From assembly GCF_001625195.1 (NCBI RefSeq), contig NC_054390.1, positions 744,001 to 808,000 of the forward strand: a DNA stretch of 64,000 bases, read 5' to 3'. Under the pieces are notes generated by a model. The model was not told the origin of the DNA. It saw nothing but the letters and a program-made list of their open reading frames with translations, and did not search any database. The position numbers and the translations under genes were made by a program. Shown piece after piece: positions 24,653 through 64,000 of the stretch (positions are counted from its first letter, which is position 1; every line of letters starts with the position of its first letter). This DNA is from Drechmeria coniospora. Lineage: Eukaryota > Ascomycota > Sordariomycetes > Hypocreales > Ophiocordycipitaceae.

Positions 24653-27600
24653 ATGGGCCACGAGATGGAGAATGAGTTTCGAAGAATCATCAGCTCCCTC
24701 GATAAAAATCACAGACTTGGATTGTCTCCTACTGATCCCTCCCTCTCTCCGAGAAGTTCGATAGAGCAGCTGCACGAGGGTACGGAGAAGGACCGCCTTC
24801 GTACCATCTACCAAGGACTGCAATTTCTTCACTCCTCTCAGCCACCCCGATTTTGGCAATGTCTTGAACGCTTTCGTGTCGAAGCTCTCAAGATTCATGA
24901 GCAATTCAATCTTCACCAGTCGGAAGGTTCCCGAAGCTCGAATGCATACGTCGCGGAAAGAAAAGAGCTTCAGCGTTGTCTGTTCAACATCCTATTCGCG
25001 GAGCCTTCCACGGCCAGCAGCTCAAACAAGGCAAAGAGATCATCGGATGACTTCGGAAAGAGCAATTTCAAGCGGCCCAGGAATCGTTCCACGGATGAGC
25101 CCCCGAAAAGTAACAAAAACAAAATTCTCCTAGTTGATTCTATCCCCGTACGATCTCGGGAGAGCAGCCCGTGCGTCGGCGTCTTCGCTCAGGAAGGCAG
25201 AAAAACTTCCATCATGTCATACTTTTCAAAGTCTTCCGCAAAAGTATCCTCATCAAGCTCAGCATCGTCGTCTTTTCCGTCAAGGACGTCGAACGGCATC
25301 GGCAAATCGCCGAGCGAGCAGACAAGCTTCACAACCGTGACAACAGATGATCTCTTTCCGCTATGCAGCCAAGAGTACCGTGCTCTGAGTGAAAGCTTCT
25401 CGGCTTTTGATTCTAGTTCATGTCGGAATACAGATGCAACGTACGCCAACATGAAACTGACGTCTCCGACAAAGGAGCCCGAGGTAAGCTGGACACTGCA
25501 GGATCGGCTCAAGAATATCTGGCGTACGTACCACTCGCCTTGCTACCTCTCCACGATTGTGCTGACTTGAGACAGCGAACCTGCCCAACGAGAGTTTCAA
25601 CGAGGCCCCTCTGGCCATTTCTTGGGAGGTCACCCGCATCTCCCAACATTGCGGAGTCAACTTGGCAGGCTGCGATCTTGTCTACAATCCGAATTGGCGC
25701 GACCAAACGACGATGCGAGAGGGGCTTGCCACATGCGGCCCATTCTTAGGCAAGGTGCTGCCTCAAATTGTCGACACTCAACTCTGGATGGCAGCCCTTG
25801 GAACGTTCGAGTTACATCCGCAAATTGTCACAATCTCCGCCAAGTTGGAGTACAACGCGTCTCATGACGGACCGCTATTTATAACTCGCCTCCATCCCCT
25901 GAAACTTGAATTCGGCCATCGATTGAGCCGTCGGTTCGGGGCCGATAGATTCCTTGAGATCCTCGTTCCATCCCTGGCCACAAAGGAGCGACCAGCTTCC
26001 GCCAAGCATGGTTCAAACATTGACATCATCAACTGGCTCGCAACAACCAGCCACTTTATGCTGGGACGAAACTGGCGTCTGTACTACATGACCAAGAAAA
26101 AAAAGACCGTTCAGTTGGCATCAAAATCCAAGACTGTCTACCTTGACCGCCTGCACTTTTTCGCTGTCGATGGCATCACCTTCAGACCGTCAAACACCTC
26201 CGGAGGCCCACCACCACCCGAAGAAGCCTTCTCACCCAATCGTCGTACAAAGATGAAACTTGGCGCCTTGCTCGATTGGACGATTCACATATCAAATAAT
26301 CTTTCGCAGCCCGTTCCCAAGTTGTTCTCTCGTATTGCTCTAAGTGAGTGACTTTCACGTTTGGAAGTGGCCACGTTGGTTTTCGAGCTGACAGCATAGG
26401 CTTAACAAGGACCACACCGACGGTTGAGTTACAGAAGCATGAAATCATACATGAAAGCAAAGACATAATCGTCGACAGCATCGTCATGAATGACGGCATC
26501 GGTCGCATGTCGAAGAGTCTGGCGAAGAGAATTGCAGATCATCTAAAGCTCGAGAATACGCCTGCGGCCTACCAGGCTCGGATTGGAAGTGCCAAGGGCA
26601 TGTGGATCATTAATACGGACGATGATGGCTTCAGTGATGATTTCTGGATCAGTACATACCCATCGCAACGAAAATGGGATTGCGACTTCGATGATCCTCT
26701 TCATCGGACCTTTGAAGTGAAGGACTGGCCACGTCGTCCGAGGCCAGCAGCATTGAATCAACAGTTCATTCCTGTGCTCGAGGAACGTGCATCTGACCCT
26801 GCAGCGATGCGGCAGGCCATTGCTGAGCACTTGAGAAGCAGCTTGCTTGCAGACATGGATGCCTTCAAGGAGGCTTTAGTTCACCCCGAGAACTTGCGCC
26901 ACTGGCTAGATCAGTCTCGACAGTCTCGACAGGACCACATCTCCCACGGCCATGTCCCGTACTCGGGTGGACTTCCTACCTCGCCCGAGTATGCACTCAT
27001 ATGTCTCCTGGATGCTGGCTTCGACTTGCAAAAGAACAAATATATGCAGGATCGCTGTCAGGACATTGCAGACAGGATTTCCAAGAGATTATCAGATAAG
27101 ACGCACATCAAGATTCCCCAATCGACCAACTTATTCATGGTTCCCGATTTTTGTTCCGTCTTGGAAGAGGGTGAAGTTCACGTGGCCTTTTCCACCATGT
27201 ATCAAACAGACGGCTTCAGCGACACTTTGCTGGAGGGCATGGACATTCTCGTCGGTAGGTCTCCTGCCCACTTCGAAAGTGATATTCAAAAAGCGAGGGC
27301 AGTATCGCACCCGAAACTCCGCCAATTGAAGGACGTCATTGTCTTCCCGATGAAGGGCAAGTCTTGCCTCGCCGACATGCTGTCCGGTGGGGATTATGAC
27401 GGGGACAGGGCTTGGATTTGTTGGGATCGAAAGATTGTCGACAACTTTTGCAACGCCCCGGTACCCAATTGCGACGACCTCTTCCAGCAAGGATATCTGA
27501 CAAAGCTGGATCTGCCTGTGCAGGATTTCTGCGATGAGAAGTGGGACATCGACATGGTGTGCGATAAGTTCGTCTCCAACGGCGTTCAATTCAACATGCA

Positions 27601-28564
27601 ACCATTTCTGCTCGGCATATGCACCAATTGCAAGGAGAAGCTAAGCTACTACGAAAATACCGTCAGCGGCCCGAAAATCGTCGCGTACAGCAACCTGCTT
27701 AAACATCTCGTGGATCAGTCCAAGCAGGGCATCTGGTTTTCCTTCAACGACTTGAGCCGGTTTCAGAATGAGGTCGTGGGGTCGAAGAAATACTTGGACG
27801 AGCCAGAATACATGTCAGACAGGCCATCTGGTCATGTCTGGGGTCCCATCAATGGCCAGGTGAGGCAGAAGCATATTTTGGACTATTTGAAGTTTGACGT
27901 TGCGAAACCAGCCATTGATGATGCCCGAGAGAGCTTCAGCAAGGCGTTCCAGGGCACAGCTGGACAATATTACGATGAAGACTTGACCAAATGCGTGAAC
28001 CATTACGAGAAAAAGCGAGCAACTTCAGAGACCTGGAATATCGTCTTCAAACACCTTCAGTCTAAGATTGAAGCAGTTGCTTCTGAGTGGCAGGACAAGA
28101 TGGGCCAGGGGCCAGGGGACTTTGCCATCAGGGTGAGCCGCACGAAGCAGATACACCAGAGGTGGATGCAAATTGGTCCACCCGAAGGGCTTCCTTCCAA
28201 TGACGCCGTCAGTGACCTCATGGAGAGTTGGAGCCGCGACCCTGGGTCAGCTACGTGGTCGCTCCTCAAGGCATCATTGACTTTTAAACTCTATCACAAG
28301 AGGAAGCCGAAATTCACTTGGCAAATAGCAGGGCGTCAGCTCTGCAAAATAAAGGACAGGATGACTTGCGACAATGGCGAGACGGCGTCAGTCGTTATTG
28401 GAGCACGGATGTTTGCAGCCCTTCGATCGGATCGGCGGTTTAACGCGACCTTGGGAGTTCCCCGCGGAATGCCGAGAGACAACGAAAGCATGCTCGCCAT
28501 GGATGAGGTTAGGAGATATGATGAAGTTGGTACGCAGTTGATTTATGATGAACCCAGTTTGTAA
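24653..28564 (+). CDS. RNA-dependent RNA polymerase, QDE-1/SAD-1 class
   Basis: Cellular RdRP of the RNA-silencing pathway, converting aberrant or single-stranded RNA to dsRNA for Dicer. Three exons: 24653-25523, 25576-26343 and 26400-28564. Introns of 52 nt (GTACGT...GACAG) and 56 nt (GTGAGT...CATAG) with gctgac branch sites; total 1267 aa. The N-terminal roughly 280 residues are Ser-rich and probably disordered. The catalytic core runs from about 295 to the end. The hallmark double-psi beta-barrel motif is at LSGGDYDGDRAW with catalytic Asp 878, 880 and 882. Upstream conserved blocks include DGIGRMSKSLAKRI and the LDAGFDLQKN region. No frameshift or stop interrupts it. Its class within eukaryotic RdRPs (quelling versus meiotic silencing) needs a tree. 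Pieces of this gene recur, scrambled, at 29.33-29.71 kb. Confidence 0.95.
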
Positions 28565-29335
28565 TGTTTGTGTTGGATATGAAGTGTTTGGAATACTCCC
28601 TGTATTAGTTCCACAAGAACCTGATACGTGTACCAGTGATATTTTAGTAAGAATACAACATACTTGATGTCTTCAACAAACTTGATGTCTTCAACAAACT
28701 TGATGTCTTCAACAAACTTGATGTCTTGCCAACAGTAGTACATACGGTTCTACTTCAATTCTAGCAGTTGAAACAGTATCCAGCTATCGCGATGCTACTC
28801 GTCCTACGTACTCGGAGTCTGACGAGTCAGACCTATTTCTAATGATACTCTCCCTTATATGCGCTTCAGCAAAAGCTCTTTATACGTGAAGTTATTAGAC
28901 AGTACCGGTTCGTGCTTTGGCACTTGATGAACCTAGTTTTCTGCGTTATCCGTACGACTTGCTGGCCGTAATCCGGAAACGTCGAGCTACGTTTTACATA
29001 ACAGAGACTGAATAGTACTGTCAGATTGATGCATAACATAGGCTGCAATACATGAGATCTTCTAGAACATTTATTTAAGGGCTAAAGGTGCTAGATATAC
29101 TTGCTTGACGAGCGGTAATGCAGCCCATGCAACGTCGTACATTAGCTAACCCCCATTCCGGGTCCAATGTTCAATGCTATAGCACTGTACTATTTGCTGT
29201 AATATGTGACAAACGTGCTAGCAGTCCGTTCTTGTGTTCCCTCTTATTCTTTCGTATCGTTATAGTATTTCTGCAATCGATGTGCCTTTCCCACCGATCG
29301 TGGACATTTACATGATATTCATGGTGGCTGCCGTC
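28530..29335. repeat. duplicated RdRP 3' flank, copy A
   Basis: Colinear with 30890-31650 in the same orientation, starting around the RdRP stop codon. Matching anchors: ggatatgaagtgtttgga versus ggatgatatgtttgga; gtcctacgt...gagtcagacct in both; the stretch from gcagtccgtt to atcgtggacat, ending in ttcatggtgg, in both. Copy A is more AT-rich; many differences are C/T or G/A transitions. Confidence 0.8.
28662..28730. repeat. 18-bp tandem repeat (acttgatgtcttcaacaa), ~3.8 copies
   Basis: Three perfect copies plus a partial fourth, about 100 bp after the RdRP stop. It is absent from the matching place in flank copy B (around 31020). Confidence 0.93.
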
Positions 29336-29710
29336 GGCAGTTTATTCCTGTACTCGAGCAACGCATGTCGGTTCCTGCAGCAATACGATAGGCCATGGCT
29401 GAGCACCTGAGAGGCAGCATAGTTGCGGATATAGAGGGAATCCAGGCAGCTGTACAACCGTCGCGCCGGCGCGGTAGGCGAGATGAAGCATCTCGCGCGG
29501 TCGAAATTCACTTGGGCAATAGCAGGGCGTCAACTCTGCACACTAAAGAGCAGGATGACCTGCGACAATGGCAATACAGCGTCAGCGGCTATACATCACG
29601 GATGCTCGCATCGCTTCGACCGGATCGGCAGTTTATCATGACCGGGGGAGTCTGTGTAACATTTTTCATCAAGTTTCAAACAGACGGTGTCTGCGACAGT
29701 TTGCTGCAGT
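29330..29710 (+). pseudogene. scrambled relic of RdRP with an NRPS-like reductase fragment
   Basis: Four pieces are seen. 29338-29460 resembles RdRP 26758-26880 (shared ttcattcctgt/ctcgagg and gctgagcac...gcagc). 29461-29500 resembles 33245-33287 inside the NRPS-like gene; on the minus strand it reads REMLHLAYRAGATV against REMLRLASRAGATV. 29503-29640 resembles RdRP 28309-28442 (aaattcacttgg, atagcagggcgtca, gcgacaatggc). 29655-29706 resembles RdRP 27188-27240 (tcaaacagacgg). The order differs from the parent gene and the frames are broken, so no RdRP product is expected. Confidence 0.82.
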
Positions 29711-29741
29711 ATATAAGTGAGAGGGTTTAGTCAATGATTCT

Positions 29742-30053
29742 ATGGAGCAAAACACTATTAGACAACAATCTCATATTGTCGTCATGTCAAACGCCATTTT
29801 CAATCCAGCACGAAACCAACACCTTGGGGGTTTGAGCACGGCAGGGGTAATTGCTTTGGCCCTTCCATTAGCCATCGCTTTGGCCGTTGCTATCTTGGCC
29901 GATGTTCCTTTGGCCATCATTCCCTTAGCCTTCGTTCCCCTGGCAATAGCAGTAGGCATCGGGAGCAGCCTGGGGTCTTGGATCAGCGTGAGGCCAGTGA
30001 GCAGGCACACACTGCCCTTTGAATTCTTATTCCAATTCGCGGTATTTCCTTGA
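29742..30053 (+). CDS. possible small membrane protein with degenerate Ala/Leu/Ile repeats
   Basis: A 103-codon ATG frame follows the relic. Residues about 35-75 form a long hydrophobic stretch (for example LALPLAIALAVAILADVPLA) coded by degenerate 18-base repeats of ttggccat/tagccat type at about 29855-29950. No family recognised. It may simply be a repeat array that happens to be open. Confidence 0.2.
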   Translation: MEQNTIRQQSHIVVMSNAIFNPARNQHLGGLSTAGVIALALPLAIALAVAILADVPLAIIPLAFVPLAIAVGIGSSLGSWISVRPVSRHTLPFEFLFQFAVFP

Positions 30054-30203
30054 GCGTTCCATCACGTGTTTCCATGCTGTGTGCAGTTCGTTACTGTCCT
30101 CCTGCCCGCAGGACTTTGCGCCACTCGCAGCAGCTTCATCGATCGTCTTCAGACTTTCAATCAACCACCATTTCCCAGGCATATTCTGTCTTGTTTTCAA
30201 CTA

Positions 30204-30431
30204 TTATTCGTCGTTCCCTGGGCCGTACGATTCAGGAAACCACGATGGAGCACCGTGTTTCTTGAGCCATGCTATACTGGAATCATAGTAGGGATTGGTA
30301 TCCTCTCTATTACTTGCAGCCAAATGATCCTTTGCATACTCCTCTGACCACCGCTTTTCGGACTGAACAGCAGGTGCAGCAAGTCCGAGTCCGGCTAGAG
30401 CGGCAACGAAAATAGTAATAGAGGCGCGCAT
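30204..30431 (-). CDS. small secreted protein (75 aa), effector- or peptide-precursor-like
   Basis: ATG at 30431 starts a 75-aa protein with a clean signal peptide (MRASITIFVAALAGLGLAAP) followed by AVQSEKRW, where KR resembles a Kex2 processing site. The mature part (SEEYAKDHLAASNREDTNPY..., ending in GAPSWFPESYGPGNDE) has no Cys and is acidic. A tatatata box lies at 30550-30558, about 120 bp upstream on the same strand, supporting a real promoter. It sits between the two duplicated RdRP flanks. Function unknown; a processed peptide or effector is a guess. Confidence 0.6.
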   Translation of the reverse strand: MRASITIFVAALAGLGLAAPAVQSEKRWSEEYAKDHLAASNREDTNPYYDSSIAWLKKHGAPSWFPESYGPGNDE

Positions 30432-30889
30432 TTTGTAAATAGCAGTTGAAGTTATGGTAATGATTGGTGGTAGAACGAGGCGTTTGATCGGCTGAGAAAT
30501 GGTAAAGCTTGGTTTGTGTTTTGCTGCTCTTGTCGTCGTGCTCGAACGACTATATATACACATACATGCACGACTACGGGGAAGCATTACCTTGGCAACT
30601 TACCGTCACGTTTATAATTGAAACACACTCCTTCTGGTGCCGCATTTAAAGTGTCCGCGCGATATGCTGAGGGACTACGCCTACGTTGAACGTATATCTG
30701 AAACGCGAAACACTTGGTGGTTCGCAACTATTTGCTTCACCATGACGCCAGGTCCCACCCACACCTACTTGGCTGCATCTAGTCCAGTTATTCAAAGTGC
30801 TTTTGTATCTCCGACACATCCAACTAGGTGTGGGATAGGTGCTGTATCGAGGAAGATTGTATGTATACGTACATTCAAGTATGCTGAGA

Positions 30890-31650
30890 ATGGCTATGGC
30901 TTGACTAATGATGAAGCCGGTCCAGAACCTTCGTGTCTGGATGATATGTTTGGAAACCCTCTTTATCAGTTCAACAAGAACGTGTCATGTTTGATGAGCA
31001 TTCTGTAGAAAGAATACAGTACATGAAATTTTTTAATCGGCAGTAGCATATCGGGTTGCATTTCAACTATAGCAATCAAAATCATAGCCAGTTACCGCGA
31101 TTTACTGTTCGTCCTACGTTTCGGGAGTCCCCGGAGTCCCTGGAGTCAGACCTACCTGCAACGATGCTCTCGTTTACGTGAGACGCTGCAAAAGCTCTTT
31201 ATCCGCCCGAAGGTATCGAGCGGCTACGGTGGGTGCTTCGGCTGGCTCTTGACAGGGTTCACTGCGTCGTTCGCACGACTCGCCGACCGTCATGCGGAAC
31301 AACTCGAGCCAAGTGTTTCTTGATCGAGTGGTAAACGATACAGGCAAGATAGATGCACCATGTCGGATCTTTTCGCCATTCTTTCTTCAAAGGCCAGAAT
31401 GCTAGATTTACTATTTCACTCGTCGTGACCCGGCAAATGCACCATCTCGCATCTGCTGAGTGGTGTTTTGATGGGAGCATTGAATGTTGCATAGCCATAT
31501 CATTTGCCGCAATACTGTACAACACAAACGTCCCAGCAGTCCGTCATCGGGTTCCTCTTGTTCCTTCGTCTCCGTGATATTACTGCAATCGATTCACCTT
31601 TCCCCAGCGATCGTGGACATAAACATAACATTCATGGTGGCCGCCATCAT
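30890..31650. repeat. duplicated RdRP 3' flank, copy B
   Basis: Diverged direct copy of 28530-29335, ending about 95 bp before the 3' end of the NRPS-like gene. It includes a trace of the RdRP C-terminus (ttgactaatgatgaagcc matching ttgatttatgatgaaccc). It lacks the 18-bp repeat array found in copy A. Confidence 0.8.
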
Positions 31651-31744
31651 GACGTCGGGTCCACATGAAAAAACAAACTCATCGGTATGGCGCCAAAGCC
31701 AAGGACCTCGTCTTGGTGGTGGCGACGGGGAGGTCTATTTCTCA

Positions 31745-34700
31745 TCAGATCGGTTCCTCGCGCGGCTCTATGAGCACCTCGTTCACGGCTACATGCTCCG
31801 GCTGCAGGACGGCAAACATAATCGCCTTCGCCACGTCCTCGGCGTCGAGGACCTTGGCGCCTGTCGGCTCGCCATACTTCTTCAGCGCCTCTCGGTCCGT
31901 CGACATGCCCAGCAGGCCCGTGTCGACGTTTCCGGGCTGGATGGACGTCACGCGCAGACCGGAGTTGGCCGTCTCGAGACGGAGCGACTGCAGAGTCGCC
32001 TCGACGAAGAACTTGCTAGCCGAGTAGACGCCGAGGCCGGGAAAGACCTTGCGGCCGGCGTCGGACGAGATGGCGACGACGTGGCCTTTGCCGCGCTGCA
32101 GGAAGCCCGGAACGGTGCTGGACAGGCAGTGCAGCAGGCCCTTGCAGTTGACGTCGACGGTCCGCTCCCACTCGTCCGCCTGGACATTCCCCATCATGGT
32201 GAAGTACATGACGCCTGCGCAGACGACGAGGATGTCGATGGGGCCGAGCTTCTCCGTCGTCGTCTGCATCAGGGACTGCACCTGACGCGCGCTCGTCACG
32301 TCCGTCGGGTGCGTCAGGATCTTGCCGCTGCAGCCGGCGAGGCCATCCTTGACATTTTCGAGCAGGTCCTTGCGCCGGGCGGCGAGGGCGACGTGGGCGC
32401 CCTCGGCGGCCAGCTTGGCGGCGACGGCGGCACCCATGCCCGACGACGCGCCCGTGACGACGGCGACCTTGCCGGCGAGACGCCCCCTCTTGGCGCGGAC
32501 GCCGTTGCCGTTCACGTGCAGGCGGCGCGGAGGATGGGAGAGCCAGCCTCGGGCGTAGAAGTGGCGAGCGTACGTCTCCCAGAGGTGCGTGTCGATCTTC
32601 GGTCGCTTCAGGCCGTAGAGGTCGAGCGCGGGCTGCGTCGCGTCGTCCTTCAACACCGTCACGCACCGCAGCGTCTCCACCGTCGGCATGCCGCCGCGCA
32701 GGATGTCGACGGTGAAGGGATCGTCGCCGGCCCGCGTTCCGCGCTTCTCGCCCCAGAGCGTCACCCACTCGTCAAAGGGGAGCTTCTCGGTCGGGTAGCC
32801 CAGGGCCTCGAGGCTCGCAAACACCTCGTTGGCCGAGACGGGGTTGGGGTCGCCGAGGTGGTAGAGCCGCTGCTTCGTGCAGGGGTGGTTGGCGAGCGTG
32901 ACGATGGCGTTGCTGACAAAGTCGACGGGCGTCATCTCGGCGAGCCAGCCGTCGACTTCGGGAGCGACGCCGAGGTGCAGGGACTCGACGAACAGGGCGT
33001 TGAGGAGATCGTACGTGTTGGTCGACCCGGTGACGCTGTGGCCGCTGATGGTGCCCGGACGGTACACCTTGACTGGGATGCCGCGTCGGCCGGCTTCGTA
33101 GACGAGCATCTCGGCCACCCACTTCGTCTGGCCGTAGCCGTCGAGGAGCTTCGTGGGGACGGCGTCGATGTCGAGCATCGTCTCCTCGTTCCAGCCCTCG
33201 ACCGAGGGCGGCAGCACGCCGTTGGTCGACACGTGGTGGACCGTGGCGCCGGCGCGGGAGGCGAGCCGAAGCATCTCGCGCGTGCCGCCGACGTTGGCAT
33301 TTCTCAGCGCCGCGTAGGGATACACAAGGTTCACCGTGGCGGCGGCGTGGACGATGACCTCGACGCGGGACGCAAGCTCGTCGAAGGCTTCGGGGGACAG
33401 CCCGAGACGGTTGCGCGCCAGGTTGCCGGGCACAATCTCCATGCGCTCGAGCATCGTGTCGTCCCAGATGCCGAGGTCGATCAGGTTCTTGCGGATGCGG
33501 GCGATGCCGGCCGGCCGGTAGTTCTCTGACGGCTCGGTGAAGCGGACGAGACACAGGACGTGGGCCGAGGTGCTGTCGAGAATGGCCTTGAGCAGGAAGG
33601 CACCCAGATAGCCGGTCGTGCCGGTGAGCAGGACGGTGTCGGCATCGCTCAGCCGACGCAGCGGCGTGCCGTCGGACTGGATCTCCTCGGGCAGCACGCA
33701 GTCGGCACGCAGCACTGCCGGCAGGTCGGCCTGCACCGCCGCCGTGTGGCCGTCCCGCGCGCCCTTGACGGCCTCGAGGTGGCCCTCCAAGGTGGGCGTG
33801 CCGGCCAGCGGGCCGAGGGGGACGGGGAAACCAAAGGCCCGCGTGAGCCGACCGGCGAGGTCGGCGAGGATCAGAGAGTGGCCGCCGAGGTCGAAGAAGC
33901 TGTGGTTCGGCGAGATGGCGCTCGTGGGAATGTTGAGCGAAGCGGCCCACATCTTGACGATGGTGTCCATCTGCACCTTGGTGTCGCGTTCCTTCTTCTT
34001 GGCCTTGACGACGGGCGTGCTGGGCGACGGCGGCGGCGGCAACGCCTTGAGGTCCGTCTTGCCCGAGACGCCGTGGGTGGGCAGCTCCCGCAGCTCAACC
34101 CAGAGGGCGGGGATCATGTAATGGGCGAGGTGGTCGGTGAGGGCGCGGCGGGCGACGGGGCTGTAGCCGGACTCGTCGACGACGAGCACGGTGCGGCCCC
34201 TGGGCTCGCCCTTGTCGGGCACGACGTAGGCCACGAGCTGCTTCTCGAGGCCCTCTCCGCGGGCGACGACGGCGCAACCCCGCACGGCCAGGTGCTTGAC
34301 GATGGACGTCTCGACGGCGCCCGGCTGGACGGTGTAGCCCCTGGTCTTGATCATGCCGCCGACGCGACCGGTGATCTCGAGCAGGCCCGAGGGCAGCAGG
34401 CGGGCCATGTCGCCCGTGCGATACATCCGACGGTTCCCGCTCGGATCGAAGGGGTCGGGCTGGAAGGCCTTGGCCGTCGTCTCGGGAAGGTTGAGGTACC
34501 CCCGCGCCAGCAGCTGGCCTCCGACGTAGAGCTCGCCGGCGGTCCCGACCGAGACCCTGTTACCGGCCTCGTCGAGGATGTAGATGTGCTCCGGGTCGAG
34601 GGGCGGGCCGACGGGGCAGACGCGGGACTCGTCGTCGAAGAAGCTCCTGAGGTCGCCGGCGGCCACCTCGTGCGTCTCGCTGGCGCTGTAGACGTTGAGC

Positions 34701-61683: not shown

Positions 61684-64000
61684 GTCGAGGGTCGGCGGCG
61701 GACGCGAGGACTCGTCAGGGCCCGGTGGCGATGGCCGTCGTGCAGGTGTTGGGGTATTTATGAAGGTGGTGTCGTGGGCGATGTCGTGGGCAATGTCGTG
61801 GGCAATGTCGTGGGCAAGGCTCGTCCTGCTCGATCCGGGTCCTTCCTTGCCTGTCGTCTGCACATGGACGCGGCCCTGCACGGCACGTACGGGGGGACGT
61901 ACGAGGAGTCTGACCCTGTCCCTGTCGCCGCGGTGTGATTGCACTGAATGGGTACGCAGCCGAGATTCGTCGTGGGACTGCACCTCTCGCATCCGTCGAC
62001 GAGCAAGAGGGGTGGTGGGGAGGGAAGAAGCAACGGAGGAGTGACGGAGGAGTAATGAATGTTACGTCTGGCTTCGCCAAACGGGCCCCACGTCGGCGCG
62101 GATCCTGCAGGTGCCGGCGGAAGGAACAGTCGAGGCGGGCCTCGCGGATGGTTCATCAGACGATGCATTATTAATATGTCGGAGCAAAGCATGACGGCAG
62201 CGCCGGCAAGGGTACGCAGCAGCTACTCCTCACCATTGTACACCACGGCGACCGGGCACCTGGCCTGCGCCGGACGAGTGCGCCTGGAGGCATGCATCAT
62301 GCAGTCGAGATACAAAATTCACAAGTACCGTCCGGGGGACCGTACGCCTACTTGCATGTACTGTACGCTCACAACTAGTCACCACCAGGTACCTACTAGG
62401 TAGGTACCTGGTGCAGGTACAGGCACTCCTCCGCACTCGGCACCAAGACAACGAAGCGTCAGGTACGGAGTACGGACGGACAGAGTACCTAACCTAGTAC
62501 AAAGGGATGACAAAAATGTCGATTCAGTTTGTAGGAGCGGCGGCACCAAAACTGAACCGTCACTTTTGTCGAGTGACCGTAGCGCTCTCTTGGTTGGGTC
62601 GGGTGGTGGGTCGCCAGCATGCTTCGCGCCGACGCCAGCGCTAGCTCGTCCGCCCGCCGTGCTGCCGCCATGCGTGGGTGGTGTCCCTGATGGCGATGGC
62701 ATCGGTCCCGCGGCGAGACGGCGACGCTAGGGTAAGACAGGCCGTCGTCGACCGGGCGCCTCGCTGCCCGTTCGGATTCCGATGGGCCGCCACGCCCTCA
62801 GCCCTCCTCTGCGGCAAAACAATTGGCAAGGCCTCTTGTTGGCCCGTCACCGGCTCCCGCATGCTTCCGCCTCGTCGACCGGGGCAACCGGACGAACGAG
62901 CGCATCCGTCCGGTCGACGACGGTGCTTGGCGAGGGCGGCGGTGGCAGGCCGACGACGACGACGGCTCGCGCACGTACGAGTCAGCGGGGCGGCGAGACG
63001 GAAGGAAATGGCCTGCCACGGCGGCTCTGCCGGACGACTGGGTAATGCCGCGCACACGCAGATTGATGATCCCCACAGCAAGCAGCGCATCGTATTCGTG
63101 CGGCTCGTGGTGTCGGAGATGCAGTAGAAGTACAGTACATGGGACAAGAACTTGCTAGTTGGTACCTTGACCATCTGTGCAAGTTGACCTACGGAGTGCA
63201 GTGAGGAGTAATTACAGTGGCAGGGGAGTGCAAGTTGGTAGCAACACGGCACCTGCATACAGTACTGTTACTAGGTGTGATTAGGTACGGAGTAATTACA
63301 GTACATACAGGTACCTAGTTGGTCGGTACCTAGGTGCCTTGGTACTACGTCTAGCACCAAGTAATACGGCCCAGAGTCCTCCGTATGGGTACATGGAACT
63401 GCAGTTGCCGCAAATGCAGCACAAGTACCGTATCAGCGCAAGCACGTACAGGTAATAATACAGCAATGACAAGAACGGGGCAGCACTTGTGTTGACTGCA
63501 ACCCTCTGCTTGCAAGCACATGCGGCGGCTGCCTTGGCCAACACATGCATGAATCAGCACCAAATGAGGAGCATGCAGGTGGACGAAAAAGGACGGAGAA
63601 AAAAGTCGTTCGTCGCGCGAACGCAATCCCTCTCGGATCCGGCCCGCATTCGCAGGCCAAGGAGTAGAGATGCTCGAGCGCCAGTCGCTGCTTGGACGGC
63701 GATGGTGCCGAGTGGACGAGATCCGTGCTGCTGGCAACTGCAGTTTCGGCGCATGAATCAACTTACGAGGCGAGTCAATGCACTAGCGAGTAAGGGAACG
63801 ACCGGATGGATTGGGCCACCATTAGGGCCGCGGCGAGGCCTTGCGGGTACCGAATGCGCTGCCTGAACTACGGCACACCAACGACGCCCAATACGGAGTA
63901 CATGATGGCACCAAGTACGGAGTACATATGCCGCACTTGCAGCACTCTGCACTCCGTATTACCACCTACCTGTACTCCGTACTCTTGGACTACTTGCACA
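61684..64000. other. 3'-terminal intergenic region, repeat-rich
   Basis: 12-bp tandem gtcgtgggcaat at 61771-61818 in the upstream region of the large fungal-specific gene. GTAC/TACTCCG words at 62320-62490, 63120-63450 and 63880-63985. Short GC-rich open frames at 62640-63130 have no recognisable domain. No gene supported. Confidence 0.45.
61771..61818. repeat. 12-bp tandem repeat (gtcgtgggcaat) x4
   Basis: Units at 61771, 61783, 61795 and 61807; first and last differ by one base each. About 90-135 bp upstream of the minus-strand gene's ATG. Confidence 0.93.

What the first reader, a model, noticed from the sequence alone, without database searches (positions are those of the whole stretch)
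29330..29710. Mosaic relic joining shuffled RdRP pieces with an NRPS-like reductase fragment
Three stretches match separate parts of the intact RdRP gene (about 26758-26880, 28309-28442, 27188-27240), in an order different from the gene. Between the first two lies about 40 bp matching the NRPS-like reductase domain (33245-33287; REMLHLAYRAGATV against REMLRLASRAGATV on the minus strand). Both parents flank the relic, one on each side. This suggests repeated template switching or non-homologous repair at this spot, or a silencing-derived cDNA-like insertion. An RdRP-homologous remnant next to an active RdRP could also seed small RNAs against it.
Basis: seen in the sequence. Interest (0 to 1): 0.75.

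Follow-up and report, generated by a model that had tools for sequence, protein, structure and literature searches.

The report
Decayed tandem copy of RdRP end
Next to an RNA-silencing polymerase gene in a nematode-killing fungus lies what looks like the worn-down leftover of an old side-by-side duplication of that gene's end, patched with a few short pieces of neighbouring DNA; it is most likely ordinary genomic debris.

Summary
In detail: all four pieces match their parents far above shuffled sequence. The window is inferred to be Drechmeria coniospora.

The stretch between the genes is itself duplicated: 28517-29335, including the last 48 bp of the RdRP gene, recurs at 30880-31648. The first RdRP piece joins the end of the left intergenic copy directly, as in a head-to-tail tandem duplication. 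Three RdRP stretches (26758-26878, 28308-28458, 28517-28564) then run in gene order into the right copy. Most of the 'shuffled' relic is thus a collinear, truncated, decayed second copy of the RdRP 3' end.

Two short pieces stay out of place: 43 bp of the NRPS-like gene where about 1.43 kb of RdRP is missing, and 54 bp of RdRP at the left edge of a probable 1.0-kb insertion that holds a small secreted-protein-like gene. Both look like repair fillers (inferred).

No further copy was found in the genome (limited sensitivity), and no relic 21-mer matches RdRP perfectly, so a silencing role is unlikely. Interest is low.

The parts
24653..28564 (+). RdRP gene (parent), open segments 24653-25570, 25662-26351 and 26348-28564; catalytic-type DYDGD motif at 27392
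   Evidence: Pfam PF05183 E 1e-102 on the last segment; motif; ORFs; tblastn of a Tolypocladium RdRP in three stretches between 24668 and 28540
28517..29335 (+). IG1: left copy of the end of the duplicated block (last 48 bp of the RdRP CDS with its stop codon, and about 770 bp intergenic)
   Evidence: Aligns to 30880-31648, 524 identities in 856 columns; intergenic part scores 339 against at most 39 in 100 shuffles
29334..29454 (+). RdRP' piece p1, copy of 26758-26878 (29338-29435 by stricter BLASTN), joined directly to the end of IG1: the tandem-duplication junction
29457..29499 (+). 43-bp piece, copy of NRPS-like gene 33240-33282 (39/43 identical), in the place of RdRP 26879-28307
29502..29651 (+). 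RdRP' piece p2, copy of 28308-28458 with a 1-bp deletion
29652..30653 (.). Inferred insertion of about 1.0 kb between RdRP' 28458 and 28459
   Evidence: 28459-28484 resumes at 30654-30679 (21/26). Suggestive only: 24/1000 letter shuffles; 4/1000 and 4/1000 dinucleotide shuffles, 7/125 control windows and 4/97 control targets reach the score
29656..29709 (+). p3, out-of-order copy of RdRP 27182-27235 at the left edge of the inferred insertion
30204..30431 (-). Small secreted-protein-like ORF (75 aa from the inner ATG, signal-peptide-like start by eye); matches D. coniospora DCS_03475
   Evidence: translation; 6 other matches in its own genome, 5 of them at C1:37-44 kb; protein collection hit P0122 only
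30880..31648 (+). IG2: right copy (48 bp of RdRP' tail plus intergenic), running on into the flank before the NRPS-like stop codon
31745..35596 (-). NRPS-like gene (AMP-binding, carrier, reductase and short-chain-dehydrogenase domains), parent of the 43-bp piece
   Evidence: Pfam

Best explanation
The relic is the decayed right-hand copy of an old head-to-tail tandem duplication. The duplicated unit ran from inside the RdRP gene (26758) through its stop codon to the end of the intergenic stretch (29335, equivalent to 31648). Shown: the intergenic block is present twice in direct orientation; the left copy abuts the most 5' RdRP piece; RdRP 26758-26878, 28308-28458 and 28517-28564 plus intergenic follow in gene order; the reading frame is broken by a stop codon and a 1-bp deletion. 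Inferred: the 5'-truncated copy lost constraint and decayed. One break removed about 1.43 kb (26879-28307) and was closed with a 43-bp copy of the nearby NRPS-like gene. A second break at 28458/28459 took in about 1.0 kb that starts with a 54-bp copy of RdRP 27182-27235 and carries a small secreted-protein-like gene. The relic itself most likely does nothing.
For: IG1/IG2 alignment 28517-29335 with 30880-31648; intergenic part scores 339 against a shuffle maximum of 39. The extension into the RdRP coding sequence scores 24 against a maximum of 16 in 100 shuffles. IG homology ends at 29335 and RdRP homology begins at 29334-29338. All pieces are direct and p1 is the most 5' RdRP piece. The flank beyond IG2 (31649-31800) is not found in the relic region: 137 of 200 shuffles score as high. 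None of 4 other NRPS stretches exceeds its shuffle maximum in 28565-31744. Divergences fit one event: JC 0.36 for the two intergenic copies and 0.27 for relic against gene. Differences over codon positions are 25/20/28. Searches of the own genome list no further copies of the relic or of IG1 (lower-bound searches). Tandem duplication, large insertion and deletion-plus-insertion outcomes at nuclease-induced breaks are described in another ascomycete, Magnaporthe oryzae, mostly with added donor DNA (PMC9684475, passages only).
Against: p3 is out of gene order and the NRPS piece is foreign to the unit, so a pure tandem duplication does not explain everything. The missing 28459-28516 is recovered only in part and weakly, and 30680-30879 is not accounted for. 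Two RdRP stretches that should be absent, 25653-26757 and 26879-27181, came near significance in 28565-31744 (2 of 60 shuffles each), and three tiles of 29710-30209 scored moderately against RdRP (5-6 of 60 shuffles). IG1/IG2 identity is uneven: 0.59-0.75 in nine 80-bp bins, 0.83 and 0.89 in the last two. p1 alone has differences concentrated at third codon positions (10/5/18, p 0.02), so it may have been under constraint for a time. No related fungal genome DNA was available to show the state before duplication.
Confidence: 0.78

Rival explanations
1. One replication-based or polymerase-theta-type repair event with serial template switching built the entire mosaic (IG copy, p1, NRPS piece, p2, p3) in one step from templates within about 7 kb.
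For: Pieces of 43-150 bp, all local and all direct, with about 2 bp of unexplained sequence on either side of the NRPS piece.
Against: Three RdRP stretches and IG2 are in gene order, and the first join is that expected of a tandem duplication. The NRPS piece is less diverged than the RdRP pieces (4/43 against 73/325, Fisher p 0.047), which hints at a later date.
Confidence: 0.13
2. Tandem duplication of the whole RdRP-NRPS block, both middle genes then eroded and locally scrambled.
For: Both parents contribute, both flank the relic, and the intergenic stretch is duplicated.
Against: It predicts NRPS remnants between IG1 and the first RdRP piece. The only NRPS piece found lies between p1 and p2, and none of 4 other NRPS stretches exceeds its shuffle maximum in the interval.
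Confidence: 0.05
3. A gene-capturing transposon (Helitron-like or Pack-type) carrying fragments.
For: Fragments of two genes within 400 bp.
Against: No further copy listed in the genome (limited sensitivity), fragments only from adjacent genes, framed by duplicated intergenic DNA, and only one inverted-repeat pair in 29600-31000 (18-nt arms at 30758 and 30817, to the right of the inferred insertion). Helitron end motifs were not tested.
Confidence: 0.02
4. The relic is a functional silencing trigger acting on the adjacent RdRP.
For: Sense-strand RdRP homology next to the gene; 29 of 354 relic 21-mers have at most 2 mismatches to RdRP.
Against: No perfect 21-mer, longest exact match 15 nt, direct and not inverted repeats. 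No expression or small-RNA data were available either way.
Confidence: 0.02

Closest known systems
Truncated tandem-duplication pseudogene
   Same: Head-to-tail copy of a gene part plus 3' flank, 5'-truncated, frame broken, mostly in gene order with its parent
   Different: Interrupted by a foreign 43-bp piece, one out-of-order RdRP piece and a probable gene-bearing insertion of about 1 kb
Templated or filler insertions at double-strand breaks (polymerase-theta or other end joining)
   Same: Short copies of nearby DNA at deletion and insertion joins, with 2 extra bases at two joins
   Different: Too diverged (9-27% per piece) to read microhomology; mechanism inferred only
Repeat-induced point mutation (RIP) of duplicated DNA in ascomycetes
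   Same: The species is reported to show RIP (PMC7882544 and PMC4792172, passages only). IG1 indices are RIP-like (TpA/ApT 1.08, second index 0.97); T/A letters are biased to IG1 (74 against 43, p 0.005); CA-to-TA changes are 21 towards IG1 against 6 towards IG2, and 9 towards the relic against 0 towards RdRP
   Different: Relic, IG2 and RdRP indices are not RIP-like, and CpA sites are not significantly more changed than other C sites in IG1 (p 0.27) or in the relic (p 0.33)
Helitron or Pack-type gene-fragment capture
   Same: Fragments of two genes close together
   Different: No further copy listed, only adjacent donors, no terminal inverted repeats found; Helitron ends not tested

Membership tests
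Tandem-duplication pseudogene | Duplicated sequence in direct orientation on both sides of the join | tested here: met
   IG1/IG2
Tandem-duplication pseudogene | Junction joins the 3' end of the unit to its 5' end | tested here: met
   IG1 ends at 29335; the most 5' RdRP piece starts at 29334-29338
Tandem-duplication pseudogene | Remaining pieces in gene order | tested here: inconclusive
   p1, p2, tail and IG2 are in order; p3 is not; 28459-28484 is in order but weak
Tandem-duplication pseudogene | Frame disrupted, no coding constraint | tested here: met
   Stop in p1, 1-bp deletion and later stop in p2; changes 25/20/28 by codon position, p 0.51, though p1 alone is skewed to third positions, p 0.02; the 111-aa ORF over the relic had no hit at E <= 0.01 among 15 candidates
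Templated filler insertion | Insert copied from a nearby identifiable donor | tested here: met
   33240-33282 is the only NRPS-gene place listed in the window and genome searches
Templated filler insertion | Microhomology priming at the joins | tested here: inconclusive
   Joins printed; divergence too high to read
Gene-capturing transposon | Several genomic copies with shared ends | tested here: not met
   Only the relic and two parent places listed in the genome; that search missed the two weaker parents, so a strongly diverged copy could escape
RIP-mutated duplicate | C-to-T in CpA context, raised TpA/ApT in copies | tested here: inconclusive
   IG1 yes by index, relic and IG2 no; direction bias 21:6 and 9:0 but context tests p 0.27 and 0.33
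siRNA-producing silencing locus | Small RNAs from the relic | not testable with these tools
   No small-RNA data; sequence match is poor

The most novel reading that the evidence does not exclude
The RdRP-homologous relic is transcribed and yields small RNAs that tune the neighbouring RdRP, a self-made feedback element in a silencing gene created by its own duplication.
Probability: 0.02. Interest if true: 0.65.

Novelty: new member of a known kind. Interest (0 to 1): 0.15.

Why it matters
It is a readable fossil of how a fungus reported to show RIP loses a duplicated gene end: tandem duplication, truncation, deletion with a copied filler, then a probable insertion carrying a small secreted-protein-like gene. 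It also shows that an apparent shuffled mosaic can be mostly collinear once the flanking duplication is seen. Beyond that it is ordinary.

Tried and rejected
A jumping alignment of 28565-31744 gave 19 segments at its strictest penalty: the four relic pieces and 15 others scattered over both strands, several of which persist at the laxer penalties. Of those 15 I followed up one, 28456-28484 at 30650-30679, because it is collinear; the rest I take as chance without testing each. That script ran no shuffled control. The controls are, where 0 of 8 tiles over 29710-30900 exceeded the shuffle maximum for RdRP or NRPS, though the first three reached 5-6 of 60 for RdRP.

A RIP origin of the divergence was tested and left inconclusive. 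A search for a homologue of the 111-aa ORF 29395-29730 found none. A literature search for a fungal RdRP tandem-duplication pseudogene listed 3 papers, unrelated by titles and abstract openings. Two further searches on fillers and on RIP were seen as listings, and passages of two listed papers were read; the RIP paper is not used as evidence. Passages of PMC4859500 and PMC7500977 had no mention of an RNA-dependent RNA polymerase. I make no claim that such a case is absent from print.

Baseline: self-comparison of the 254 kb around the locus gave 45 repeat pairs 200 bp to 15 kb apart, 5 of them from this locus. The method missed p1, so counts are lower bounds. By eye the rest look like short repeats, inverted repeats or paralogue-like pairs, but genes there were not annotated.

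Full report
Check of the observation. BLASTN of 29200-29900 against the window finds the four reported pieces at the reported places: 29338-29435 with 26762-26859 (76.5%), 29457-29499 with 33240-33282 (90.7%), 29502-29651 with 28308-28458 (80.8%) and 29662-29709 with 27188-27235 (81%), E-values 5e-7 to 1e-34, all direct. Each of the 4 pieces beats all 200 of its dinucleotide-preserving shuffles against its parent gene. A search of the own genome (32.8 Mb, 28 contigs) with 29330-29720 lists 3 places: the relic itself, 28308-28458 and 33240-33282. It did not list the two weaker RdRP parents, so absence there is not proof. With the RdRP protein the search lists the gene, one weaker locus on C1 and two relic matches. 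The donors found are therefore the two neighbours.

What and where. The last RdRP segment matches Pfam PF05183 at E 1e-102; the minus-strand neighbour has AMP-binding, carrier, reductase and short-chain-dehydrogenase domains. The RdRP carries DYDGD. Its best protein hit is RJ55_07438 of Drechmeria coniospora, 99% identical over the 61% of the query that aligned. From these I infer that the window is a D. coniospora assembly, a fungal endoparasite of nematodes.

The missed feature. Self-comparison of the window shows that the intergenic DNA itself is duplicated: 28733-28995 with 31041-31317 and 29209-29335 with 31524-31648. One alignment joins these into 28517-29335 against 30880-31648, 524 identities in 856 columns. 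The intergenic part scores 339 against at most 39 in 100 shuffles. The similarity runs leftwards through the stop codon into the last 48 bp of the RdRP coding sequence; that anchored extension scores 24 against at most 16 in 100 shuffles. The left copy is continuous with the intact RdRP; the right copy is continuous with the flank of the NRPS-like gene.

Anatomy of the relic. The left intergenic copy ends at 29335, and RdRP homology starts at 29334-29338 with the most 5' RdRP position found in the relic, 26758-26762. End of unit joined to start of unit is what a head-to-tail tandem duplication leaves. From there the RdRP stretches 26758-26878, 28308-28458 and 28517-28564 follow in gene order into the right intergenic copy. 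Five other stretches of RdRP and four of NRPS were compared with 28565-31744 against letter shuffles. Only 28459-28516 exceeded its shuffle maximum (0 of 60); 25653-26757 and 26879-27181 came close (2 of 60 each), and the other six did not. The flank beyond IG2, 31649-31800, is not found in 29320-30900 (137 of 200 shuffles as high).

The probable insertion. 28459-28516 has a 21/26 match at 30654-30679 that begins at the base after the end of p2. Controls are mixed: 24/1000 letter shuffles against the whole interval; 4/1000 target and 4/1000 query dinucleotide shuffles, 7/125 RdRP control windows and 4/97 control targets reach the score. If it is real, 29652-30653 is a clean insertion of about 1.0 kb. 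30680-30879 remains unexplained.

What does not fit the simple duplication. First, the 43-bp NRPS piece lies in place of the missing RdRP 26879-28307, with 2 bp of other sequence on each side by the laxer alignment of p1. It differs from its parent at 4/43 sites against 73/325 for the RdRP pieces (Fisher p 0.047; binomial p 0.022), weak evidence that it came later. Second, 27182-27235 sits after 28458 at the left edge of the insertion. Both are plausibly templated fillers; the mechanism is inferred, since the joins are too diverged to show microhomology.

Age and decay. Differences between the intergenic copies are 208/732 (JC 0.36) and between relic and RdRP 73/325 (JC 0.27), compatible with one date if two unconstrained copies are set against one unconstrained and one constrained copy. 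By RdRP codon position the differences are 25/20/28, not different from even (p 0.51), although p1 alone is skewed to third positions (10/5/18, p 0.02). p1 has an in-frame stop; p2 has a 1-bp deletion and a later stop. The 111-aa ORF over the relic has no homologue in the protein search and no Pfam match.

RIP. The species is reported to show RIP (passages of PMC7882544, and PMC4792172). IG1 has RIP-like indices (1.08 and 0.97); relic (0.64, 1.45), IG2 (0.60, 1.24) and RdRP (0.40, 1.48) do not. T/A letters are biased to IG1 (74 against 43, p 0.005). CA-to-TA changes run 21 towards IG1 against 6 towards IG2, and 9 towards the relic against 0 towards RdRP, but CpA sites are not significantly more changed than other C sites in IG1 (p 0.27) or in the relic (p 0.33). 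Inconclusive.

Silencing. The repeats are direct. The longest exact relic-RdRP match is 15 nt. Of 354 relic 21-mers, 0 match RdRP perfectly, 5 have one mismatch, 24 have two and 52 have three. A role as trigger is unlikely but needs small-RNA data to exclude.

Baseline. In 254 kb of the contig there are 45 repeat pairs 200 bp to 15 kb apart, 5 of them from this locus; the method missed p1, so these are lower bounds.

Verdict. A real relic, best read as an ordinary decayed tandem duplication of the RdRP 3' end with two short fillers and a probable gene-bearing insertion. No related fungal genome DNA could be searched, so the order of events is inferred from one sequence.

Noticed in passing
window 30204-30431 (minus): Small secreted-protein-like ORF (matching DCS_03475) inside the probable insertion; five relatives lie at C1:37-44 kb near a contig end and one weaker match at C2:3.86 Mb; the protein search listed only the species' own record, from 3 candidates.
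   Followed up: partly
window 27739-28564: The annotated RdRP RJ55_07438 (731 aa) matches only up to 27739, while the window frame stays open to 28564 and matches the Tolypocladium C-terminal part; that gene model may be truncated or differently spliced.
   Followed up: partly
window 28656-28727: An 18-bp unit repeated four times (98% match) in the left intergenic copy; the right copy has a gap there.
   Followed up: no
window 29209-29335 and 31524-31648: The distal end of the duplicated intergenic DNA, on the NRPS-like 3' side in the right copy, is more conserved (79% by BLASTN) than the rest; a shared 3' regulatory stretch or uneven mutation is possible.
   Followed up: partly
window 62504-62581 and G000 C2:659507-662545, 808084-809321: A dispersed repeat of about 75 bp in both orientations recurring at several places on the contig.
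   Followed up: no
L005 (G000 C1:3875182-3875409): A second, distant RdRP-like locus in a long open frame (1497 aa), 46% identical over 77 residues.
   Followed up: no
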